Below, piece after piece: positions 5,843 to 19,122 of a DNA stretch of 64,000 nucleotides. The stretch is taken from NCBI RefSeq assembly GCF_003431325.1, contig NZ_CP010515.1, positions 62,001 to 126,000 on the forward strand, written 5' to 3'. Within the stretch, counting starts at the first letter, position 1. Each line of letters begins with the position of its first letter. A program made the translations under genes and the position numbers. Source of the DNA: Acidilobus sp. 7A. GTDB taxonomy: Archaea; Thermoproteota; Thermoprotei_A; Sulfolobales; Acidilobaceae. A model generated the notes under the pieces. The model searched no databases. It was not told the DNA's origin and saw only the letters and a list, made by a program, of their open reading frames with translations.

Positions 5843-6130
5843 CCCGGGACCTCGCCGTGAGTCTGACCTCCTCCCCGCCCTGAAGGGTAAGGGTTCCCTT
5901 AGGGCGGCTCACTGGTTCGCGGCTTACAGCCCTCACCTTCATCACCTCACGGCTAGTGGGTGCGGTAAGCGCCCACCCCGCTCCGCTCGTCCAGCGGTAG
6001 GCCGCGGGCTGGGCCTTCAGCCCTTTACCCCTATCCCTCGCCAGGGGTTGCCCCATCCCCTGGGTCCCAGGGACTTGGGGATATGTAAGATGTTTATAGC
6101 AGCGTTCAGGTCGGCGTTTATGACCTTCCC
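5843..6130 (-). ncRNA. Predicted TnpB guide RNA (omega/reRNA) with 20-base guide
   Basis: In TnpB systems the guide RNA is transcribed across the end of tnpB and the right end, and its 3' guide is the sequence just outside the element. Here the 3' part of tnpB plus the 154-base non-coding right end (5863-6016) is strongly conserved among copies at 1387, 8777 and 12452. It is full of pairable segments, for example CCCCTGGGTCCCAGGG. The guide would be the minus-strand bases at 5862-5843, starting ACTCACGGCG. The 5' boundary is a guess. Confidence 0.5.
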
Positions 6131-7189
6131 TGTGCGGGGACACCTGAACAGGCCACGCCTAATTCGCCCACCCTCGTGGGCCTCCCCGCACAGGGAGCAG
6201 GTCCTGGAGGTGTTGGCCTCACTTACCTTAACAACTTTAATTCCCAGCTCCTCGCCTACCTCCTCAAGGCGCCTGATAACATAGCTGTAGTTCCAGAAGT
6301 TCACGGTGAGCTTGTTGCCGTGATCCCTAGAGATCTCTTTAGGGTAGCCTACGACAACTTCACCCACGCCCTTCCCCTTCAGCTCCTCCATTACCCTCCT
6401 GGCCATGCTATTTAACGCGTGCCTCAGGAACCTCCTCCTTTTGTCGTAGAGCAGCCTGAGCCCCCTGCTCCCCCTCTGCCCGTGCCTTGCCAGGACCTTC
6501 TGGGCCCTGGCTATCCTCTTGCTGTAACTCTCGTACTGGGAGAGGACGCCGCCGCCCTTGAAGAGGTACCAGGTGCCGTCCTCAACGTAAACCGTGGCTA
6601 AGTTAACGATCCCTAGGTCGATGGAGGCCCTAAGCCTGTCCTCTGTCCTCGCGTTGTTCTCAACTTCAACTGGAATAAAGGCGTACCAGGCCCTCCTGGC
6701 CTCGTCATAAAATATCTCCAGCCTGCCCTGCTTCCCACGCCACTTGAGCCTCCCCTTAAACCCCAGGGCCAGACCAAAGTCCTTGAGGTAAATGACCCTC
6801 CTGCCCTCGTCCACCTCATAGCGGTCGTTCCTAATCAAAACTGTCAGCCTGTACTTCCCGCCCTCGCCCTTCCAGTAGCCTGGAGGCCTCAGCCTGAGCC
6901 ACCTCGGCAGCCTCCCCTCCTTTTTCTCCTTAACTAAGGAGAAGAAGCCCCTCCAGGCCTCTGCGTTCTTCCTGGCGACCTGTTGCGCGTTAACCTTCAG
7001 CACGTGCTTGTACTTTTCATACACCTCTTTTTCTGTCCTGTTGAAATCTATCCTTCTCCCCTCCTTGAACTGCTGCGCCCTCAGCCAGTTCACCTCGTTC
7101 CAGCACTTAGCTGTGGCTATGGCAAGCTCCCTCAGCCTCTCACGCGTCCCCTTGTCAACTACCAGCTTGACCACGTTAGCTCTTCTCAT
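6017..7189 (-). CDS. tnpB: TnpB RNA-guided nuclease (IS605 OrfB family)
   Basis: A 390-residue TnpB. The order is an N-terminal helical region with KCWNEVNWLR, a beta-rich recognition part, the RuvC-I strand SIDLGIVNLATV with its catalytic Asp, then VVVGYPKEI at the RuvC-II position, a zinc-ribbon-like TCSLCGEAHEGGR...FRCPRTG, and RuvC-III INADLNAAINIL with its Asp. The RuvC-II strand lacks the usual Glu (Gly instead), and the second zinc pair has only one Cys. Both features occur in an archaeal TnpB subgroup as I remember it; an alternative Glu (VSEANTS) may serve. ATG 7189 overlaps the upstream RHH ORF. Confidence 0.92.
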   Translation of the reverse strand: MRRANVVKLVVDKGTRERLRELAIATAKCWNEVNWLRAQQFKEGRRIDFNRTEKEVYEKYKHVLKVNAQQVARKNAEAWRGFFSLVKEKKEGRLPRWLRLRPPGYWKGEGGKYRLTVLIRNDRYEVDEGRRVIYLKDFGLALGFKGRLKWRGKQGRLEIFYDEARRAWYAFIPVEVENNARTEDRLRASIDLGIVNLATVYVEDGTWYLFKGGGVLSQYESYSKRIARAQKVLARHGQRGSRGLRLLYDKRRRFLRHALNSMARRVMEELKGKGVGEVVVGYPKEISRDHGNKLTVNFWNYSYVIRRLEEVGEELGIKVVKVSEANTSRTCSLCGEAHEGGRIRRGLFRCPRTGKVINADLNAAINILHIPKSLGPRGWGNPWRGIGVKG

Positions 7190-8679: not shown

Positions 8680-9396
8680 CTCCTTGTCCAGGGCACTATA
8701 GTAGGCACGGCCGTGCTTGGGGTCGTGGGAAATTGCTCCTCGAGGCGCTAAGGCTTGCCCAGAGGTGGTCCCTCAGCTGACCTCCTCCCCGCCCTAAAGG
8801 GCGAGGGCTCCCTCAGGGTGGTTCATAGGTTTGCGGCTTACCGCCCTCACCTTCACAGCCTCATGGCTAGCGGGTTTTACCCCACCCCGCTCCGCTCGTC
8901 CAGCGGTAGGCCGCGGGCTGGGCCTTCAGCCCTTACCCCTACCCCTCGCCAGGGGTTGCCCTCGACCCCTCCCAGCTCCCAGGGACTCGGGGATATGCAG
9001 GGCCCCTATTGGGGCATCCCCTTGCGGGGACACCATTTGTTCTGTGCAACTTTAAGTGCTCAGAGGTTTTATGTTTTACCCCACCCTTCCAGGGGCGGGG
9101 CTTGCCTCTCGCTTCTGTCAGGCAGGGTAGCAGAGGTGCGGGCCAGCTGAGGGGCCTGGTACCCGTGGTAAGCGCAATGGTGGCACAGCCGAGCGTGAGG
9201 AGGCTCCACAAGGCCTCCCTCACGGCCCCCTCGCTCTGCCTGGCTAGAGGACCTGCTGGGCTCAAGCCAGGACCCGAAGGAGGCGGCTGTGCTGTCAAAG
9301 ATCGACGACGCCGTGAGGGACCTGATGATAGTCTTCTCCGCAATACTGTGCTCGGCGGTGCTCAGCGAGGACTACCTTCACGCAGAGGGCGCTTAG
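8680..9396 (+). pseudogene. PhoU-like regulator remnant interrupted by a miniature element
   Basis: Remains of a paralogue of the AbrB-PhoU gene at 22616. Before the insert, QGTIVGTAVLGVVGN then LLLEALRLAQRW match QGTVVGTALLGVVGN and the following helix, with one frameshift. After the insert, VAQPSVRRLH and KIDDAVRD...FSAILCSAVLSEDYL match the C-terminus. Removing 8777-9116 rejoins the reading frame across LRSGRVAEVRAS without loss or duplication. The N-terminal AbrB half is missing, and a stop plus a frameshift follow the insert, so this is a dead gene. Confidence 0.7.
8777..9116 (-). mobile_element. 340-base miniature TnpB element (MITE-like)
   Basis: Has the right end and scaffold of the TnpB element (CTGACCTCCTCC at 8777) and its left end (CTTGCCTCTCGCTTCT up to 9116). 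Almost all of tnpB is replaced by about 85 bases that include CCCCTATTGGGGCATCCCC. Exactly the same deletion junction is found in the copy at 12452-12794. The flanking motif on the sense strand is TGAC. It must be moved by proteins supplied in trans. Confidence 0.8.
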
Positions 9397-11446: not shown

Positions 11447-12863
11447 TCAGCCCCCGAATGCCTTCCCTATGAGGGGCTCAGAGGGGCAGTAGCCCCTGTC
11501 CGTCTTCACTATCCACGAGGAGTCCATGAGCTGGGTGAGGTAGTTGCTCAGCTCGGAGTCGCTGACCCTGGCCCCCTCGCTGGCCTCGAGGGCCCTCCTG
11601 ATCTCTGACCAGGCGGCGCACCTGGCTATAGTCCTCATTATTGCGAGGTACCTCTCCCTCGCCACGTACCTTGTCCTCAGGAAGCTCTCGAACTCCTCCC
11701 TTATGAGGCCAAGGGCCGTCCTCAGCGTCCTCTCAAGGGCCCTGCCGAGGTCCCTGCCCTGGCCGTAGTAGTAGCCGAAGTAGGTGAGCCAGCCCGGTAT
11801 GCCGCCAATCGCGTCGTAGACAGTGTCGTACTTCCTGAACTCCACCCCCAGCTCGCTGAGGCCTAGCCTGAGGAACTGCTCTGCCATCTCCCTGCTAAAC
11901 GGCTTGAGCTCCACCTCGTTCATTGCCCTCCCGTAGAGGGGCGACCTGGGGTCCTCTACGCCCAGGTACCTGTAGAGGAGGCCCATCTTTGAGCCGCTGA
12001 GCACAACCCTGACCCTCCTGAGGTTGTCAAAGGAGTAGGCGAGGGCGGGCAGCAGGTTGGCCCCCCTCATGTTTATGAGCTCCTGGGCCTCGTCAATAAC
12101 AAATACCACCCTGTCCTCTGCCCAGTCGTTGAGGGCCTCGAACAGCGACGATATGGTGACCCTCTTCCGCCCTCCCCACCTGAGCCTCACGCCGCCCCCC
12201 ATGACCTCAACCCCCTCGACCCTCCTGAGGAGCTCCAGGAGGCCGGGGAACCTGCTGGTGAGCCTGTTGACCTCCCTCTCGAGCTCGACCACGAGGTCCC
12301 TGTAGGAGGCGAAGCCCTTCTCCTCGAACTTCCTGAGGTCCACGTATATGTAGGGCAGGCCGAGCTCGTTAAGGGATATCATGATAACTGAGGACTTGCC
12401 AGTCCTCCTGAGGCCCAGCGCAAGTGTTATGGGGGACGAGAGCGACTTGACAAAACGAAAGGCAAGCCTCGCCCCTTCCAGGGGCGGGGTAAGGCATAAA
12501 GCCCCTGAGCACTTAAAGTTGCACGGGACAAATAGTGTCCCCGCAAGGGGATGCCCCAACAGGGGCCCTACATATCCCCAAGTCCCTGGGACCCAGGGGA
12601 TGGGGGCAACCCCTGGCGAGGGATAGGGGTAAAGGGCTGAAGGCCCAGCCCGCGGCCTACCGCTGGACGAGCGGAGCGGGGTGGGTGCTTACCGCACCCA
12701 CCAGCCGTGAGGTGATGAAGGTGAAGGCGGTAAGCCGCAAACCTATGAACCGCCCTGAGGGAGCCCTCGCCCTTTAGGGTGGGGAGGAGGTCAGCCTCTC
12801 TATCTCCGCCTCCCTGTCGAAGAAGTCCCTCCTAGAAGACTTAGGAGCGGGGTCAAACAGCAA
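11447..12863 (-). pseudogene. Archaeal AAA-type ATPase (Arch_ATPase) split by a miniature element
   Basis: Encodes an archaeal STAND-like ATPase. The N-terminal segment from TTG 12863 reads LFDPAPKSSRRDFFDREAE. After the insertion the frame resumes KSLSSPITLALG then Walker A GLRRTGKSS, Walker B VVFVIDEAQEL and sensor VVLSGSKMG, with a winged-helix-like C-terminus. The insertion at 12452-12794 lies between residue 23 and Walker A. Its removal, keeping TGAC, rejoins the frame as EIER-VKSL. The remaining open frame could start inside the element, but it lacks the conserved N-terminal RRDFFDRE motif. Confidence 0.85.
12452..12794 (+). mobile_element. 343-base miniature TnpB element inserted in an ATPase gene
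   Basis: Plus-strand orientation. The left end AAAACGAAAGGCAAGCC follows TTGAC at 12447-12451, and the right end GGGGAGGAGGTCAG finishes at 12794. It shares the internal deletion junction and most bases with 8777-9116, and its right half matches the full element at 5863. The following bases CCTCTCTATC would be its guide. No coding capacity. Confidence 0.85.
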
Positions 12864-12865
12864 GG

Positions 12866-12906
12866 CTTCTACCCCTGGAAGCTACTTCTACCCCTAGAAG
12901 TTATAA
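12866..12906 (-). promoter_or_regulatory. ATPase promoter with tandem palindromic operators
   Basis: On the minus strand TTATAA (12906-12901) is followed at once by CTTCTAGGGGTAGAAG (12900-12885, a perfect palindrome around GGGG). After three bases comes CTTCCAGGGGTAGAAG (12881-12866), and then the TTG start at 12863. Two 16-base palindromes 19 bases apart across the expected transcription start look like a repressor operator, or alternatively a pair of RNA hairpins in the leader. Confidence 0.6.
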
Positions 12907-13040
12907 GCGCCCTGCAGCGTAAGGCGGCTCGTTGCCCCTGAGGCTGTCGTGCCCTTAAAGGTGGACAACACTCTAGGGCGCTCTCAAAGACCTTCATGAT
13001 ACGCTCTGCGACGTGAGCTTCGGCCTAAGCTCTATGTTTT

Positions 13041-13080
13041 TGTAATTTAATATAAAATTACACTAAAGCCCACTTATATT
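13041..13080 (+). promoter_or_regulatory. Promoter region of the two-gene nuclease unit
   Basis: TGTAATTT-AATATA-AAATTACA (13041-13062) is an 8-bp-armed inverted repeat that contains a TATA-like core. CTTATATT at 13073-13080 is a second candidate TATA box about 45 bases before the GTG start at 13126. The inverted repeat could be an operator for a local regulator. Confidence 0.4.
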
Positions 13081-13125
13081 GGCGGCCCTCTCAGTATACA
13101 GGGACAGCTGACCCAGGGGATTAGA

Positions 13126-14388
13126 GTGGCTAGCTGCCAGTCCAGGTTTCCTAAGGTGAAGTACTGCGACGAGAGCTGGTGGCAGGACTTCTTCACCAAG
13201 GACCTGGCCGAGTTCTACGCCTCGCTCGAGGGGCTACTCAGTGCCAGGGATGCCTTAATTAACGAGCTTTCAGGGGACATGGCCCAGGTTCTTGCTGACC
13301 CACAGAGGAGGGACCTCGCGCTAAGGGTCCTGTTCGGAGGCCTTGACGAGGGCTGCCTTGAGAAGATAAGGCACTATCACCCTACATATGAGTGGGTTAA
13401 AGGTGTTGGCAGTATTGGCATAAGTAATGTTGATATTACGTCGTGTATCAGAGGTGGCAAGGCCGCGCACTTCTACAGGGAAGTGCTTGGGATAGGGCTT
13501 GCAGAACAGTTCGATGAGGATATGAAGATGCGCGGGGGACTCCTAAATCAATTAAAGACTATGAGCTTTGAGGAAATAAGTAAAGAAAAGCTAGGGATTT
13601 CAATAAAAGGGTATGATAAAACTATTATAATGAACGACTTATCTGAAATGAGGAAAATTGTTGGCAAAATCTACAACTACCTCAAGAAAAAGCAAGTTAT
13701 ACAGGTACAGCACGAGCAAGCGAATTATGGCCTGGATCTGGTCAAAGCCTTTGAGGACTTCCTAAATAAGAGCATCAAGCTACTGCCGCTCTACAACCCG
13801 TTCACGTTCTTCATACAGTCCTTACGCTCAACGCCAAGGCCTTACCTTAGCATCATGTACGGCGAGGAGCTGTTCAGCGACCCCGTCAGGAACTTAATGA
13901 GCAAATATGGTGTTGAGCTAACGAAGATATTAGACCCGGGCCTATACGTACAATCTAAGAACGACGAGCTAGCAATTATTGGACATAAAGATGGAAGCGT
14001 TGGTAAACTAATAGACGAGTTAGTGCAGAAAATCTATGATATAATATCTAAATTAAATAGTTATGGTTACCTTGTAAGTGATGAAGATGAATATAAGAAA
14101 TACGTCAAGGCGAAGTATAACGAAGAGATATCGGCAGGTTACACGCTTGAGAAGCTGATGACAGAAGCGGATTTTGACTACAAAAAGTACTGTCAAGGAA
14201 GGGATATTGCAGTTGAAAGAGGCGTCGTCAAGACATATGAGCAAGTATTTGAGAGAGGCGAGTTCAAGATACGTGATGAAACAACCATAGGATATGAAAG
14301 GTTCTTAGAATTGTTCTCGCCATTATTGTTCCTCGGCATTGCCTGGATTGAGGGTGGTGAACTACACGTCGCGTGCCTAGGTGGTTGA
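13126..14388 (+). CDS. Unknown 420-residue protein of a two-gene unit
   Basis: I do not recognise this protein. It is mostly helical with charged amphipathic stretches, no membrane spans and no clear nucleotide-binding motif. Aromatic-rich segments include YCDESWWQDFF near the N-terminus and YNPFTFFIQSL in the middle; the end is hydrophobic (LFSPLLFLGIAWIEGG). Base composition falls well below its surroundings from about 13380 to 14350, with AT-ending codons, which suggests recent acquisition. Its stop overlaps the next gene by eight bases, so the two are probably co-translated and work together. Start GTG 13126. Confidence 0.75.
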   Translation: MASCQSRFPKVKYCDESWWQDFFTKDLAEFYASLEGLLSARDALINELSGDMAQVLADPQRRDLALRVLFGGLDEGCLEKIRHYHPTYEWVKGVGSIGISNVDITSCIRGGKAAHFYREVLGIGLAEQFDEDMKMRGGLLNQLKTMSFEEISKEKLGISIKGYDKTIIMNDLSEMRKIVGKIYNYLKKKQVIQVQHEQANYGLDLVKAFEDFLNKSIKLLPLYNPFTFFIQSLRSTPRPYLSIMYGEELFSDPVRNLMSKYGVELTKILDPGLYVQSKNDELAIIGHKDGSVGKLIDELVQKIYDIISKLNSYGYLVSDEDEYKKYVKAKYNEEISAGYTLEKLMTEADFDYKKYCQGRDIAVERGVVKTYEQVFERGEFKIRDETTIGYERFLELFSPLLFLGIAWIEGGELHVACLGG

Positions 14389-16249
14389 TGTGGCTCAGGA
14401 GGCTGAGGTTGTTGAGAAGGAGCTTAAGGAGCTTCCTGAAGAAGGCTATATACTGTACATTCTTCGCGTCCGCCGCCCTAAGGGCCTGGGCACATTATCG
14501 ATACAGACAACACCAGGCAACGCAAGTTCCACTGCCATTAGTGAGGGCGAAGAGATCAGGATTAGGCTGGCCAGGGTTGGCGTCAGCTTTGAAAGGCCTG
14601 CTGACATCAAGCTCAGCCTTAACGCGGAGACGCCAAGCTTCTCAGCACCGAGGCAGTTACAGCTGGTGCCCGTTGTGGTTTCCTTCAACAGCGTTAGCCC
14701 AATATCGCTAAAGGTTGATGAGAGCGTTCCTGTCAATGTTGTGCCAAGAGCTAAGATATCGTTACAGCCAGTCACGGTCTCGTTCAGCAGGCCGAACGCT
14801 CTAAGCCTTCAGATTGACAGCAGCTATCACGTGCCGCAGAGGACCACCTACGAGCTTAAGCCGGTGTCAGTAACGTTTGCCCAGCCTGGGCAGGTGTCAC
14901 TTGGGAACGTCAGCGATGAGGTGCGCGGCCTTGGCGTTACCCCAGCAAGCGCCACAGGGAGCGCCACAGAGTCAGCGGCGGCGCCCAGCCCCTACGAGCT
15001 GAGTGAGGGCGAGATAGGCGAGGTCGAGAGCGCCGTTGACAGGGCCCTGTTCGGCCTGGGCAGGCTCATGCCCGACAGGCCCCTGCTAATTATTGCAAGG
15101 CACGCCAAGGGCTTTGACTACATAGAGTTCCTCAAGAGGGCCCTCAGGGAGGTCTATAGGGTCAGGGTCGGGGGCCTGCCGGAGCCAAAGCACGTGAGCA
15201 GCGTCACCGACCTACAGCTGCTCATACCCGTTGAGGTCGGCGCCGGGGGAAGGCTCTTCGTAATAGACCTGGTCAGCGGCGATCTGGGCGGGCTACTGAA
15301 AAAGGGTGAGGTCAAAGGATCCTTGCAGGTCACTCTCTGTAGGATCAGGGACAGGCTAAGGGAGCTGTTCTCCCAGGGCTACGGCTTTATAGTGATCTAC
15401 GGTGACCACTACGTACTTAGGGAGCTGTACTACGTACTCAGGATGCTGTTGTCCCAGGGCTACTGTGACCACTACGTAGACAGCCCTGTGAGCGGCGTCC
15501 AGGCCGAGGCCCCCCGCAAGGGCGCCCCTGAGAACTACCTGTTAACTACATGGAAATCGATAAGTCCTGAGACCTTAAAAGAGAGCCTCTACGTCCTGCT
15601 CGCTAACCTGATGTGGGGCAGGGTCAGCGAGCCGAAGATGGACTATGAGGACATAGGCAACTTCGACGGGCTCGTCGTCAGGCTTGAGGATGAGTACTGG
15701 AAGGCCCTCGAGGGCGCCCTTAAGGACTTCAACGTACAGGTCCTGGTCAGGCCCAGCGCTGAGGGCGATGAGGCAGGCCGCGAGTCCATGAGCCACTACC
15801 TGACCAAGGCCTTCGTTGTCAACTACCTGGTCAGCAGGCTGACAGAGGAGTTCAAGGGGAAGGGGGCCAGGGAGGACGAGGCGAGGCGGAAGGCGTTAGG
15901 CTGCGTCAGGACAGAGCACCAGCCGGGCGGCGCCAACGTCAGGTTCGACGTATATGTTAAAGATAAAGATGCTAACAGTGACTGCGGCTCCATGAGCGAC
16001 CTGGTAGTTGAGGTTGAGACTCTCTACGGCACGGGCACGGCGCTCCACAAGGTCCTGGACACGATAGAGAGCAGGGTAAACGCGGGCGCAAGCAGGCTCT
16101 GGGTCGTCGTGCCGAACCCTCAGGCCGTCATTTACCTGCCGCAGCTGCTTAGGCTCGAGAGGTACGCCAGGGAGCGCTTCAAGGGCAGGGAGATAAGGTT
16201 CTACACCCTTGACGTAAAGGACGGCGCCCCGTCAGGCTGGTTGAAGTAG
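14381..16249 (+). CDS. Beta-repeat protein with C-terminal PD-(D/E)XK-like nuclease domain
   Basis: A 622-residue protein. Residues about 65-185 hold three or four repeats of a beta unit of the form (L)xPVxVSFxxPxxLSLxID, likely a stacked-beta or binding module. After a low-complexity linker, residues about 210-400 form an alpha/beta region with PLLIIARHAKGFDYIEFL and FIVIYGDHYVLRELY. Near residues 530-570 RFDVYV followed by SDLVVEVETLYGTG and HKVLDTIESR fits a restriction-endonuclease-like core (Asp then Glu-x-Glu), followed by WVVVPNP. The nuclease call is pattern-based. The overlap with the upstream gene suggests a defence or mobile-element function. Confidence 0.75.
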   Translation: MVDVAQEAEVVEKELKELPEEGYILYILRVRRPKGLGTLSIQTTPGNASSTAISEGEEIRIRLARVGVSFERPADIKLSLNAETPSFSAPRQLQLVPVVVSFNSVSPISLKVDESVPVNVVPRAKISLQPVTVSFSRPNALSLQIDSSYHVPQRTTYELKPVSVTFAQPGQVSLGNVSDEVRGLGVTPASATGSATESAAAPSPYELSEGEIGEVESAVDRALFGLGRLMPDRPLLIIARHAKGFDYIEFLKRALREVYRVRVGGLPEPKHVSSVTDLQLLIPVEVGAGGRLFVIDLVSGDLGGLLKKGEVKGSLQVTLCRIRDRLRELFSQGYGFIVIYGDHYVLRELYYVLRMLLSQGYCDHYVDSPVSGVQAEAPRKGAPENYLLTTWKSISPETLKESLYVLLANLMWGRVSEPKMDYEDIGNFDGLVVRLEDEYWKALEGALKDFNVQVLVRPSAEGDEAGRESMSHYLTKAFVVNYLVSRLTEEFKGKGAREDEARRKALGCVRTEHQPGGANVRFDVYVKDKDANSDCGSMSDLVVEVETLYGTGTALHKVLDTIESRVNAGASRLWVVVPNPQAVIYLPQLLRLERYARERFKGREIRFYTLDVKDGAPSGWLK

Positions 16250-16400: not shown

Positions 16401-16589
16401 ATGGCTGAGGGCGTTGGCCTCGCCTTTGAGGTTAAGGTCCACAGGGGGAGGCGCATAACAATACCTAAGGCGGTCGCTGACCTGCTTGGCATAGAAGAGG
16501 GCTCTAGGCTCAGGCTTCACGTCGAGGGCGACAGGATAGTCCTGGAGCCGGTCAGGGACGCCCTCTGGTTCGCAATGCACGGGCCCTAA
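16401..16589 (+). CDS. AbrB/SpoVT-type transcription factor or antitoxin
   Basis: A 62-residue swapped-hairpin DNA-binding protein: KVHRGRRITIPKAVADLLGIEEGSRLRLHVEGDRIVLEPV matches the AbrB/MazE pattern closely. ATG 16401 is preceded by a TATA-like ACTTATAG at about 16356. No toxin gene follows directly, so it is either an orphan antitoxin or a regulator of the two-gene unit 150 bases upstream. Confidence 0.85.
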   Translation: MAEGVGLAFEVKVHRGRRITIPKAVADLLGIEEGSRLRLHVEGDRIVLEPVRDALWFAMHGP

Positions 16590-17925: not shown

Positions 17926-19122
17926 TTATGGATCTATTTCCGGGCTCCATAATCTTTGAAATTCTTCACTTTTTATGTCTAGGTTATCTCGTACAAGCAA
18001 GTCATTGCCAAAGTAATCGCGTACCTTTAAGTGCTTCAACTCGCCTTCTAAGTTCAGCTCGTCTTTGGACCCCTCGCGCTCCTTCATTATAACTTCTAGA
18101 TCTTCCAAGGTCTTCGTCTCTTCTGTATAAACATATAAACGGAAGTAAAGCTTACGAGGACCGCTCCGCGTAAATACAGAGAAGCCATCGCTAAATGAAG
18201 TCTCCAATACTTCTTCCACTTTAATCCCTGGTCCAGGGAACAGCGGTAGGTTCGGCGTTCTTAGACCGAGCGAGTGGATATTAAAGAAAGTTACTTCGAA
18301 TAGATCTCTTTCTTTATTTGTGTAAAGGGAGTAATGACCCTTTAATTCTTCTTTCACATTAACCGAGGTAATCTCTACTGGTTGGTCATCGATTGTTTGC
18401 TTCTTGTAGATATATATCATTATTGCTATCTGTGTAGCAGGCTTAGACCCAATGTTTTTCAGCAAGATAGAGAACTTTGCGTTAGTAGATCCCACTTCGG
18501 AGGGTTCTAGCAGCGCTATCACAATAGGTTTCCTCTTTGACTCTATAACTTTATACACTTCTTCTATGGTCAACGGCCTTGTACTTGCGCCTTCTCGTAT
18601 ATAGGCTGATGTTTTATCTTCAAATTTGGGATAGTACAAGGCGTCGAAGCTCTTTTTAACGTATATCAGAATTAGCCATCCATCCTTGTTAAGAGCACAA
18701 TCGCTTCTACAGTTGAACACCTTAACGGTGAGGAGGGGAGGAAGGATCGCCCTTGGAATGCTCCCTAAGTGACTAGTAGATATGATACCCTGTATATGTT
18801 GTTCAACTTCACTTGCTTTCTTCCATTTTGAAGGCCATTCTGTACATACGACCCGCTCTTCTTTCCTACTAGGATCATTCACCCCTAAGGCTAGAAGCCC
18901 CTCTCCCTCTTGTGTATTGAGGAAACCAACCACAGCTCTGAGCACTTCTTTATCAACATCACCTTTATCATCAAACTTCCCCTTGAACTCTATATACTGA
19001 GTCTCGCTGATGACGCGTAGTTTTTCGAGAGCCTCTTGGCATGTAAGCTCTTCTATTTGCTTACCAAATAATGAGCTTATTAGACTCTGCTGCCCTCCTG
19101 GCGTTGAACGATTAAAACTCAT
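17926..19122 (-). CDS. AlbA_2 (Schlafen-like) domain protein, low G+C
   Basis: A 398-residue protein. Residues about 35-190 match the AlbA_2 domain of Schlafen-type proteins: ETQYIEFKGKFDD, then LRAVVGFLNTQEGEGLLALGVND, then AYIREGASTRPLT at the end. The C-terminal 200 residues are beta-rich and unassigned. AT-ending codons set it apart from its neighbours and point to transfer from another genome. AlbA_2 proteins occur as ATP-dependent regulators and in several antiviral systems. Here it stands alone, near the two-gene nuclease unit. The start is ATG 19122, before a TATA-like AT-rich region. Confidence 0.8.
   Translation of the reverse strand: MSFNRSTPGGQQSLISSLFGKQIEELTCQEALEKLRVISETQYIEFKGKFDDKGDVDKEVLRAVVGFLNTQEGEGLLALGVNDPSRKEERVVCTEWPSKWKKASEVEQHIQGIISTSHLGSIPRAILPPLLTVKVFNCRSDCALNKDGWLILIYVKKSFDALYYPKFEDKTSAYIREGASTRPLTIEEVYKVIESKRKPIVIALLEPSEVGSTNAKFSILLKNIGSKPATQIAIMIYIYKKQTIDDQPVEITSVNVKEELKGHYSLYTNKERDLFEVTFFNIHSLGLRTPNLPLFPGPGIKVEEVLETSFSDGFSVFTRSGPRKLYFRLYVYTEETKTLEDLEVIMKEREGSKDELNLEGELKHLKVRDYFGNDLLVRDNLDIKSEEFQRLWSPEIDP

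What the first reader, a model, noticed from the sequence alone, without database searches (positions are those of the whole stretch)
13041..16249. Candidate new two-gene system with a PD-(D/E)XK-like nuclease
Two overlapping genes of unknown family lie between mobile elements. The first has foreign base composition. The second joins beta repeats to a restriction-endonuclease-like core (SDLVVEVET). A palindromic promoter precedes them; an AbrB gene follows, and a split ATPase with its own operator lies upstream. This is a plausible antiviral or mobile-element module.
Basis: partly seen in the sequence, partly recalled or inferred. Interest (0 to 1): 0.75.

Follow-up and report, generated by a model that had tools for sequence, protein, structure and literature searches.

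The report
Archaeal two-gene nuclease module, undescribed
Two overlapping genes of unknown family in a hot-spring archaeon are a conserved pair, a DNA-cutting-type protein plus a fast-changing helical partner, that has moved between distantly related archaea and probably fights viruses or other invading DNA, although that has never been tested.

Summary
Gene A (13126-14388, 420 aa) and gene B (14381-16249, 622 aa) overlap by 8 bp, match no Pfam, NCBIfam or PDB family (PADLOC: no usable hit), and follow a conserved palindrome at a TATA-like box. They are a real module: A sits directly upstream of B in 37 distinct archaeal loci, their divergences are correlated (r = 0.78), and each occurs in about 10% of 398 Thermoproteota genomes, mostly the same ones. 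The pair is horizontally transferred: this copy's B lies inside a Thermoproteaceae clade. B is a short beta-repeat region, an alpha/beta domain without a Walker A motif, and a C-terminal PD-(D/E)XK-type domain. Here the motif is E-x-E; Sulfolobaceae relatives carry canonical D-x-K at that position. A has no fold match. Its residues 91-200 evolve at dN/dS about 1.4, against 0.3 in its core and 0.4 in B. I found no copy on viruses and one distant relative on a haloarchaeal plasmid. Best reading: an archaeal anti-mobile-element nuclease module in which A recognises or controls and B cuts. The defence role is inference.

The parts
13041..13062 (.). 22-bp near-perfect palindrome TGTAATTTAATATAAAATTACA, operator candidate of the A-B operon
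   Evidence: inverted repeat; unique in genome; conserved upstream of two A copies in G001
13073..13080 (+). TATA-like box (cTTATATT) about 50 bp before the start codon of A
   Evidence: sequence; conserved in G001; consensus match only
13126..14388 (+). gene A, 420 aa, mostly helical protein of unknown family, proposed recognition/control partner
   Evidence: pLDDT 77.6, pTM 0.78; no PDB fold match
13396..13725 (+). hypervariable segment 1 of A (residues 91-200), dN/dS about 1.4 against the G001 ortholog
14101..14340 (+). hypervariable segment 2 of A (residues 326-405), dN/dS about 0.7
14381..16249 (+). gene B, 622 aa, overlaps A by 8 bp
14564..14965 (+). variable-number beta-repeat region of B (four units here, five in G001)
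   Evidence: low confidence in the structure model
15044..15745 (+). middle alpha/beta domain of B; no Walker A motif
15752..16222 (+). PD-(D/E)XK-type domain of B: E468, H472, K476 (helix 1), E512, D523, E544-x-E546-T547
16401..16589 (+). AbrB/MazE-like DNA-binding protein, 62 aa; next to B in this genus only, probably not a conserved part
12447..12795 (.). 350-bp repeat, many copies in the genome, shares its end with a TnpB gene; splits the ATPase
11447..12863 (-). archaeal ATPase_2 + winged-helix gene upstream of A, split by the repeat; neighbour, not a conserved part

Best explanation
A and B form a self-contained, horizontally transferred archaeal conflict module. Shown: the two genes are conserved as an adjacent, usually overlapping pair and diverge together; B ends in a PD-(D/E)XK-type domain whose motif residues are kept. 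Inferred: B is a Mg-dependent DNA nuclease; A, a helical protein with conserved scaffold segments and fast-evolving segments, binds B (possibly through B's beta repeats) and senses or selects the foreign target, or holds B inactive until infection; the palindrome keeps the overlapping genes under tight repression. The most likely role is degradation of invading DNA (virus or plasmid), either directed or as suicide of the infected cell.
For: 37 distinct loci with A directly before B, 32 of them with a gap between -97 and +26 bp. Profile scan of 398 Thermoproteota genomes: B in 37, A in 38, largely the same genomes. Mirror-tree r = 0.78, highest of 2000 permutations 0.27 (the permutations do not remove shared species history). 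Horizontal transfer: this B groups with Caldivirga, Vulcanisaeta-size and Pyrobaculum-size genomes (SH-aLRT 98-99), and Alkanophaga B is sister to G053 of family f7, the Pyrodictiaceae by named members. B motif E..HxxxK..E..D..ExET conserved, D/ExK in ten members; predicted helix-strand-strand-strand-helix-strand order at pLDDT mostly above 85. A segment 91-200 dN/dS 1.43 (95% 0.8-3.1) against core 0.31 (0.14-0.65) and B 0.38. Extra tandem A copies in G001 and G260. Neighbours: Schlafen AlbA_2 next to B in Lokiarchaeota and near it here, HATPase-Sacsin-NOV_C in G049, HerA-like ATPase with a NurA-looking gene in Caldivirga and Vulcanisaeta, proteasome-like Ntn hydrolase after B at four loci, PLD nuclease operon on a haloarchaeal plasmid.
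Against: No virus-challenge or nuclease assay exists. Foldseek gives no significant nuclease match for B, and profile searches of the PDB are empty. In this copy Lys546 is Glu, so activity must rest on Lys476 or on an E-x-E site. Lone B (Pyrodictiaceae, in synteny beside an ABC transporter) and lone A (Aeropyrum, Desulfurococcales) suggest non-defence use. Many pair loci have housekeeping neighbours (glucosidase, arginyl-tRNA synthetase, oxidoreductases). The PADLOC hits among neighbours have no background to compare with. The dN/dS interval for segment 1 includes 1.
Confidence: 0.5

Rival explanations
1. A toxin-antitoxin (addiction) pair: B is a toxic nuclease, A its cognate inhibitor encoded just before it, with autoregulation through the palindrome or through the AbrB protein.
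For: Tight overlapping two-gene operon with A first, palindrome at the promoter, rapid co-divergence of the pair, patchy transfer, extra copies of A that could protect against several Bs. It grades into the defence reading.
Against: Both proteins are large (420 and 622 aa) for a classical pair; no match to a known toxin or antitoxin family; almost no copies on plasmids; lone B persists without a neighbouring A in Pyrodictiaceae, although those genomes hold a lone A elsewhere.
Confidence: 0.22
2. A chromosomal DNA-processing (repair or recombination) nuclease with an accessory subunit that happens to be transferred often; the lone, syntenic copies are the ancestral housekeeping form.
For: Lone B in one conserved locus in Pyrodictiaceae and lone A in conserved loci of Pyrodictiaceae and Desulfurococcales; three Pyrodictiaceae genomes keep both halves, unlinked. 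HerA/NurA-like genes beside some pairs.
Against: About 90% of Thermoproteota genomes lack it; two other genomes of the same genus have no B; paralogous multi-copy loci; fast-evolving segments in A.
Confidence: 0.15
3. The pair is cargo or machinery of a mobile element, for example a TnsA-like transposition nuclease with its partner.
For: Mobile-element surroundings here (TnpB, 350-bp repeats); multiple copies in some genomes; plasmid homologue near an integrase.
Against: No recombinase co-conserved with the pair; neighbours differ from genome to genome; no copies found in viral contigs or phage records. Element ends were not searched for systematically.
Confidence: 0.08

Closest known systems
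PD-(D/E)XK nuclease superfamily (restriction endonucleases, Hjc, CoiA, TnsA and others)
   Same: Predicted order helix-strand-strand-strand-helix-strand; acid in helix 1, Asp in the second strand, (D/E)x(K/E) in the third; Sulfolobaceae members keep D-x-K exactly. Replacement of the Lys by an acid and migration of the Lys are documented in the superfamily (PMC1189080).
   Different: No sequence or significant fold match to any solved or curated member; the window copy has E-x-E-T with an invariant HxxxK in helix 1.
CoiA family (PF06054), the only family recalled with a similar layout
   Same: From PMC1189080: a PD-ExQ variant with a conserved Arg at a swapped-Lys position, formally like ExE plus a displaced Lys here.
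   Different: Not detected by Pfam profiles; no partner like A; membership not tested beyond that.
Two-gene nuclease defence systems in which one protein recognises or regulates and the other cuts (for example ATPase-nuclease pairs, PMC11291478)
   Same: Two-gene operon with a nuclease-type effector and an unrelated partner.
   Different: No NTPase motif in A or B; no family in PADLOC matches A, and B gives only one chance-level hit.
Archaeal ATPase_2/DUF234 proteins
   Same: Archaeal, with a PD-(D/E)XK-type C-terminal domain (recalled) after an alpha/beta domain.
   Different: No Walker A in B; profile-profile comparison with DUF234 finds nothing.

Membership tests
PD-(D/E)XK nuclease superfamily | core topology alpha-beta-beta-beta-alpha-beta | tested here: met
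   Predicted secondary structure H470-493, E509-513, E522-526, E541-545, H554-567, E572-576 at pLDDT mostly above 85; a prediction, not a solved structure
PD-(D/E)XK nuclease superfamily | active-site motif D...(D/E)xK | tested here: met
   D523 in 50 of 52 rows; D/E544-x-K546 in ten homologues, E-x-E in 40 including the window copy. Met for the family; in the window copy the Lys position is Glu
PD-(D/E)XK nuclease superfamily | significant profile or fold match to a known member | tested here: not met
   Pfam, PDB profile and Foldseek searches found none; many accepted members also fail such searches, so membership rests on motif and topology and stays a prediction
PD-(D/E)XK nuclease superfamily | metal-dependent DNA cleavage | not testable with these tools
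   needs purified protein
CoiA family PF06054 | Pfam CoiA profile match | tested here: not met
   Not among Pfam hits for the A1 members or ten further proteins
Known anti-phage systems in PADLOC-DB 2.0.0 | component matches a system profile | tested here: not met
   13 B and 10 A members scanned; best hit E 0.51
Antiviral defence system (functional class) | protects against virus or plasmid | not testable with these tools
   no experiment; indirect signs only
Antiviral defence system (functional class) | patchy, horizontally transferred distribution | tested here: met
   37-38 of 398 Thermoproteota genomes; tree placement across orders and phyla
Antiviral defence system (functional class) | statistical enrichment in defence islands | tested here: inconclusive
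   Defence-type neighbours at several loci but no background rate measured
Type II toxin-antitoxin pair | toxic B neutralised by A | not testable with these tools
   needs expression
DUF234 (PF03008) archaeal ATPase-nuclease family | profile similarity of the nuclease domain | tested here: not met
   hhalign probability 0.4%

The most novel reading that the evidence does not exclude
An archaea-specific innate immune system in which A, a protein of a fold not matched in the PDB, is a fast-evolving recognition subunit that licenses a PD-(D/E)XK nuclease, with optional third components (a proteasome-like protease, a metalloprotease-like protein, Schlafen or winged-helix proteins) as modular signalling or effector parts.
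Probability: 0.3. Interest if true: 0.85.

Novelty: new variant of a known kind. Interest (0 to 1): 0.6.

Why it matters
A recent survey of 7,747 archaeal genomes (PMC12988326) calls archaeal immunity underexplored, with about a third of genomes showing nothing beyond CRISPR and restriction-modification, and Thermoproteota low in known systems. A conserved, transferable two-gene nuclease module present in about a tenth of Thermoproteota genomes and absent from the family libraries searched is a concrete candidate for that gap. One copy lies in a genome whose length equals that of Sulfolobus acidocaldarius, a species with a known virus set and genetics (both recalled), and carries the canonical D-x-K motif, so the idea is directly testable.

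Tried and rejected
Pfam, NCBIfam and PADLOC scans and PDB sequence and profile searches of A and B: no usable hit. Scans of viral contigs with both profiles: none. B in phage records: none. Plasmids: B one distant haloarchaeal hit, A none. Foldseek of A: no match better than E 1.5. Foldseek of B: weak AAA+ hits (E 0.0035, TM about 0.15) to its middle part, not believed because there is no Walker A and the scores are poor; viral library nothing. Profile comparison with DUF234: nothing. PADLOC scan of 150 neighbours: hits to AriA, GajA/OLD, MTase and others, kept only as weak evidence because there is no background. Rfam and tRNA scans of the window: nothing. Literature: no paper found on the pair; guessed locus tags gave nothing relevant.

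Full report
Observation. The window is bases 62001-126000 of a single-contig 1.54-Mb genome. Gene A (13126-14388) and gene B (14381-16249) overlap by 8 bp. A 22-bp palindrome (13041-13062) lies just before a TATA-like box; it is the only such site in the genome within two mismatches and is kept upstream of two A copies in relative G001. The AbrB-like gene, the split ATPase and its operator-like tandem palindromes are all there. The ATPase is broken by a 350-bp repeat with many genomic copies and is intact in G001. A's low GC lies in its central and 3' parts and is shared by the orthologs in G001, so it is a trait of those segments rather than a mark of recent import into this strain.

The pair is a module. 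Protein and profile searches of relatives and of named genomes, followed by neighbourhood extraction, found A immediately before B in 37 distinct loci, 32 of them with a gap between -97 and +26 bp. They span Acidilobus, Pyrodictiaceae, Sulfolobaceae, Thermoproteaceae (Caldivirga, and genomes whose lengths match Vulcanisaeta distributa (length stated in PMC3035369) and, recalled, Pyrobaculum islandicum), an Archaeoglobaceae MAG, Alkanophaga, a Thermococcus MAG and other archaeal MAGs. A Lokiarchaeota MAG has B with a different gene before it, related to the small third gene of two other loci, and a Halorussus plasmid carries the B core fused to about 1000 further residues. In 398 Thermoproteota genomes B is found in 37 and A in 38, largely the same ones. 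Pairwise identities of A and B correlate across 30 pairs (r = 0.78; highest of 2000 permutations 0.27); shared species history contributes to that number. The two scans of genome contigs, which also holds bacteria, returned only archaeal relatives.

It moves. The window's B sits inside a Thermoproteaceae clade (SH-aLRT 98-99) although its own genus belongs to another order; Alkanophaga B is sister to that of G053, a genome of family f7 (Pyrodictiaceae by named members). Of the three other genomes of the genus searched, only G001 has the pair; G003 and G002 have no B. Copy number varies: G001 has three tandem A genes before one B, a second B end on another contig, and a third, divergent and frameshifted pair; G260 has two A before one B and a second pair.

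Anatomy of B. Residues 66-195 contain four 31-33-residue beta repeats (V-x-V-x-F-x(3-4)-P-x-x-[IV]-x-L...), five in G001; related repeats can be seen in other linked Bs, while the lone Bs have short N-termini. Residues about 222-455 form an alpha/beta domain without a Walker A motif; Foldseek offers only weak AAA+ similarity. The C-terminal domain is predicted at good confidence with the order helix, three strands, helix, strand. The near-invariant residues are E468, H472, K476, E512, D523, E544, E546 and T547. At 544-546 forty of 52 rows read E-x-E and ten read D/E-x-K, nearly all from Sulfolobaceae-type genomes. That column therefore is the (D/E)xK motif, and the window copy is a Lys-to-Glu variant with a conserved Lys in helix 1. 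Replacement by an acidic residue and migration of the Lys are described for this superfamily (PMC1189080). No direct match to a known nuclease was found, so the assignment rests on motif and topology.

Anatomy of A. A is predicted as a mostly helical protein with a small C-terminal sheet (pLDDT 77.6, pTM 0.78) and has no PDB neighbour. Against the G001 ortholog, conserved segments (residues 61-90, 211-300) alternate with variable ones (91-200, 326-405). dN/dS is 1.43 (bootstrap 0.8-3.1) in 91-200, 0.31 (0.14-0.65) in 201-325 and 0.38 across B. The interval includes 1, so diversifying selection is suggested, not shown.

Neighbours. Recurrent or telling ones are: a Schlafen AlbA_2 gene right after B in Lokiarchaeota and 1.7 kb after B here; a HATPase-Sacsin-NOV_C protein after B in G049; a HerA-like ATPase with a NurA-looking gene (my reading of its DGS motif) and a HExxH protein in Caldivirga and Vulcanisaeta; a winged-helix protein before A in Thermoproteaceae; a PLD-nuclease operon on the Halorussus plasmid; and a proteasome-like Ntn hydrolase after B at four loci, in a subfamily present in only 12 of 398 genomes. 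Other pair loci have ordinary neighbours, and no background rate for defence genes could be computed.

Lone copies. Pyrodictiaceae carry a B without A in one syntenic locus beside an ABC transporter and an L13e gene, and in three genomes also a lone A elsewhere; Aeropyrum-size genomes and genus g16 carry lone A in their own conserved loci.

Mechanism. The best-supported reading is a nuclease module in which A, the variable partner, recognises or restrains, and B cuts. Whether the outcome is defence, addiction or repair is not decided by sequence. I put about 0.5 on anti-mobile-element defence, 0.22 on toxin-antitoxin, 0.15 on chromosomal DNA processing and 0.08 on mobile-element machinery.

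Novelty. No Pfam, NCBIfam or PADLOC family covers A or B, and no paper found describes the pair. The kind (two-gene nuclease module) is known; the family is new.

Noticed in passing
window 12447-12795, 8776-9120, 6017-7189: The 350-bp repeat that splits the ATPase shares the sequence coding the C-terminus of a TnpB gene at 6017-7189 (HIPKSLGPRGWG...); it looks like a non-autonomous derivative of a TnpB-bearing insertion sequence, with many copies in the genome and 15 PF07282 matches.
   Followed up: partly
window 12861-12909: Two tandem palindromes (GCTTCTACCCCTGGAAGC, ACTTCTACCCCTAGAAGT) lie between a TATA-like box and the TTG start of the disrupted ATPase, consistent with autoregulation by its winged helix.
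   Followed up: no
window 17926-19122: AT-rich Schlafen AlbA_2 gene (PF04326, E 1e-11) inserted between the AbrB gene and the conserved flank; absent at the same place in G001.
   Followed up: partly
L218:2236-11062: Halorussus pelagicus plasmid operon: 629-aa protein, 792-aa PLD-nuclease protein and a 1403-aa protein ending in a complete B core (FEIETLYGTG), near an integrase; a possible haloarchaeal version of the system.
   Followed up: partly
L181:2944-3762, L183:9913-10734, L097:11094-11873, L086:3094-3891: Rare proteasome-beta-like Ntn hydrolases (MT start, SSDS and RKVYPI motifs) directly after B in four distant loci; G457 has a degraded copy next to an A remnant.
   Followed up: partly
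L062:3547-7032: Three tandem A genes in G001; N-terminal segments nearly alike (dS 0.15-0.22) but core segments far apart (dS above 1), a mosaic suggesting recombination or gene conversion.
   Followed up: partly
L082:3268-8750, L180:3337-8311: HerA-like ATPase, NurA-looking gene and a 73-aa ORF next to A-B in Caldivirga and Vulcanisaeta, with a HExxH protein also nearby in both; a possible larger defence cassette.
   Followed up: partly
L066, L068, L069, L071, L073, L075; L192-L194: Pyrodictiaceae keep lone B and, in three genomes, lone A at separate, conserved chromosomal loci: a possible domesticated form of the pair.
   Followed up: partly
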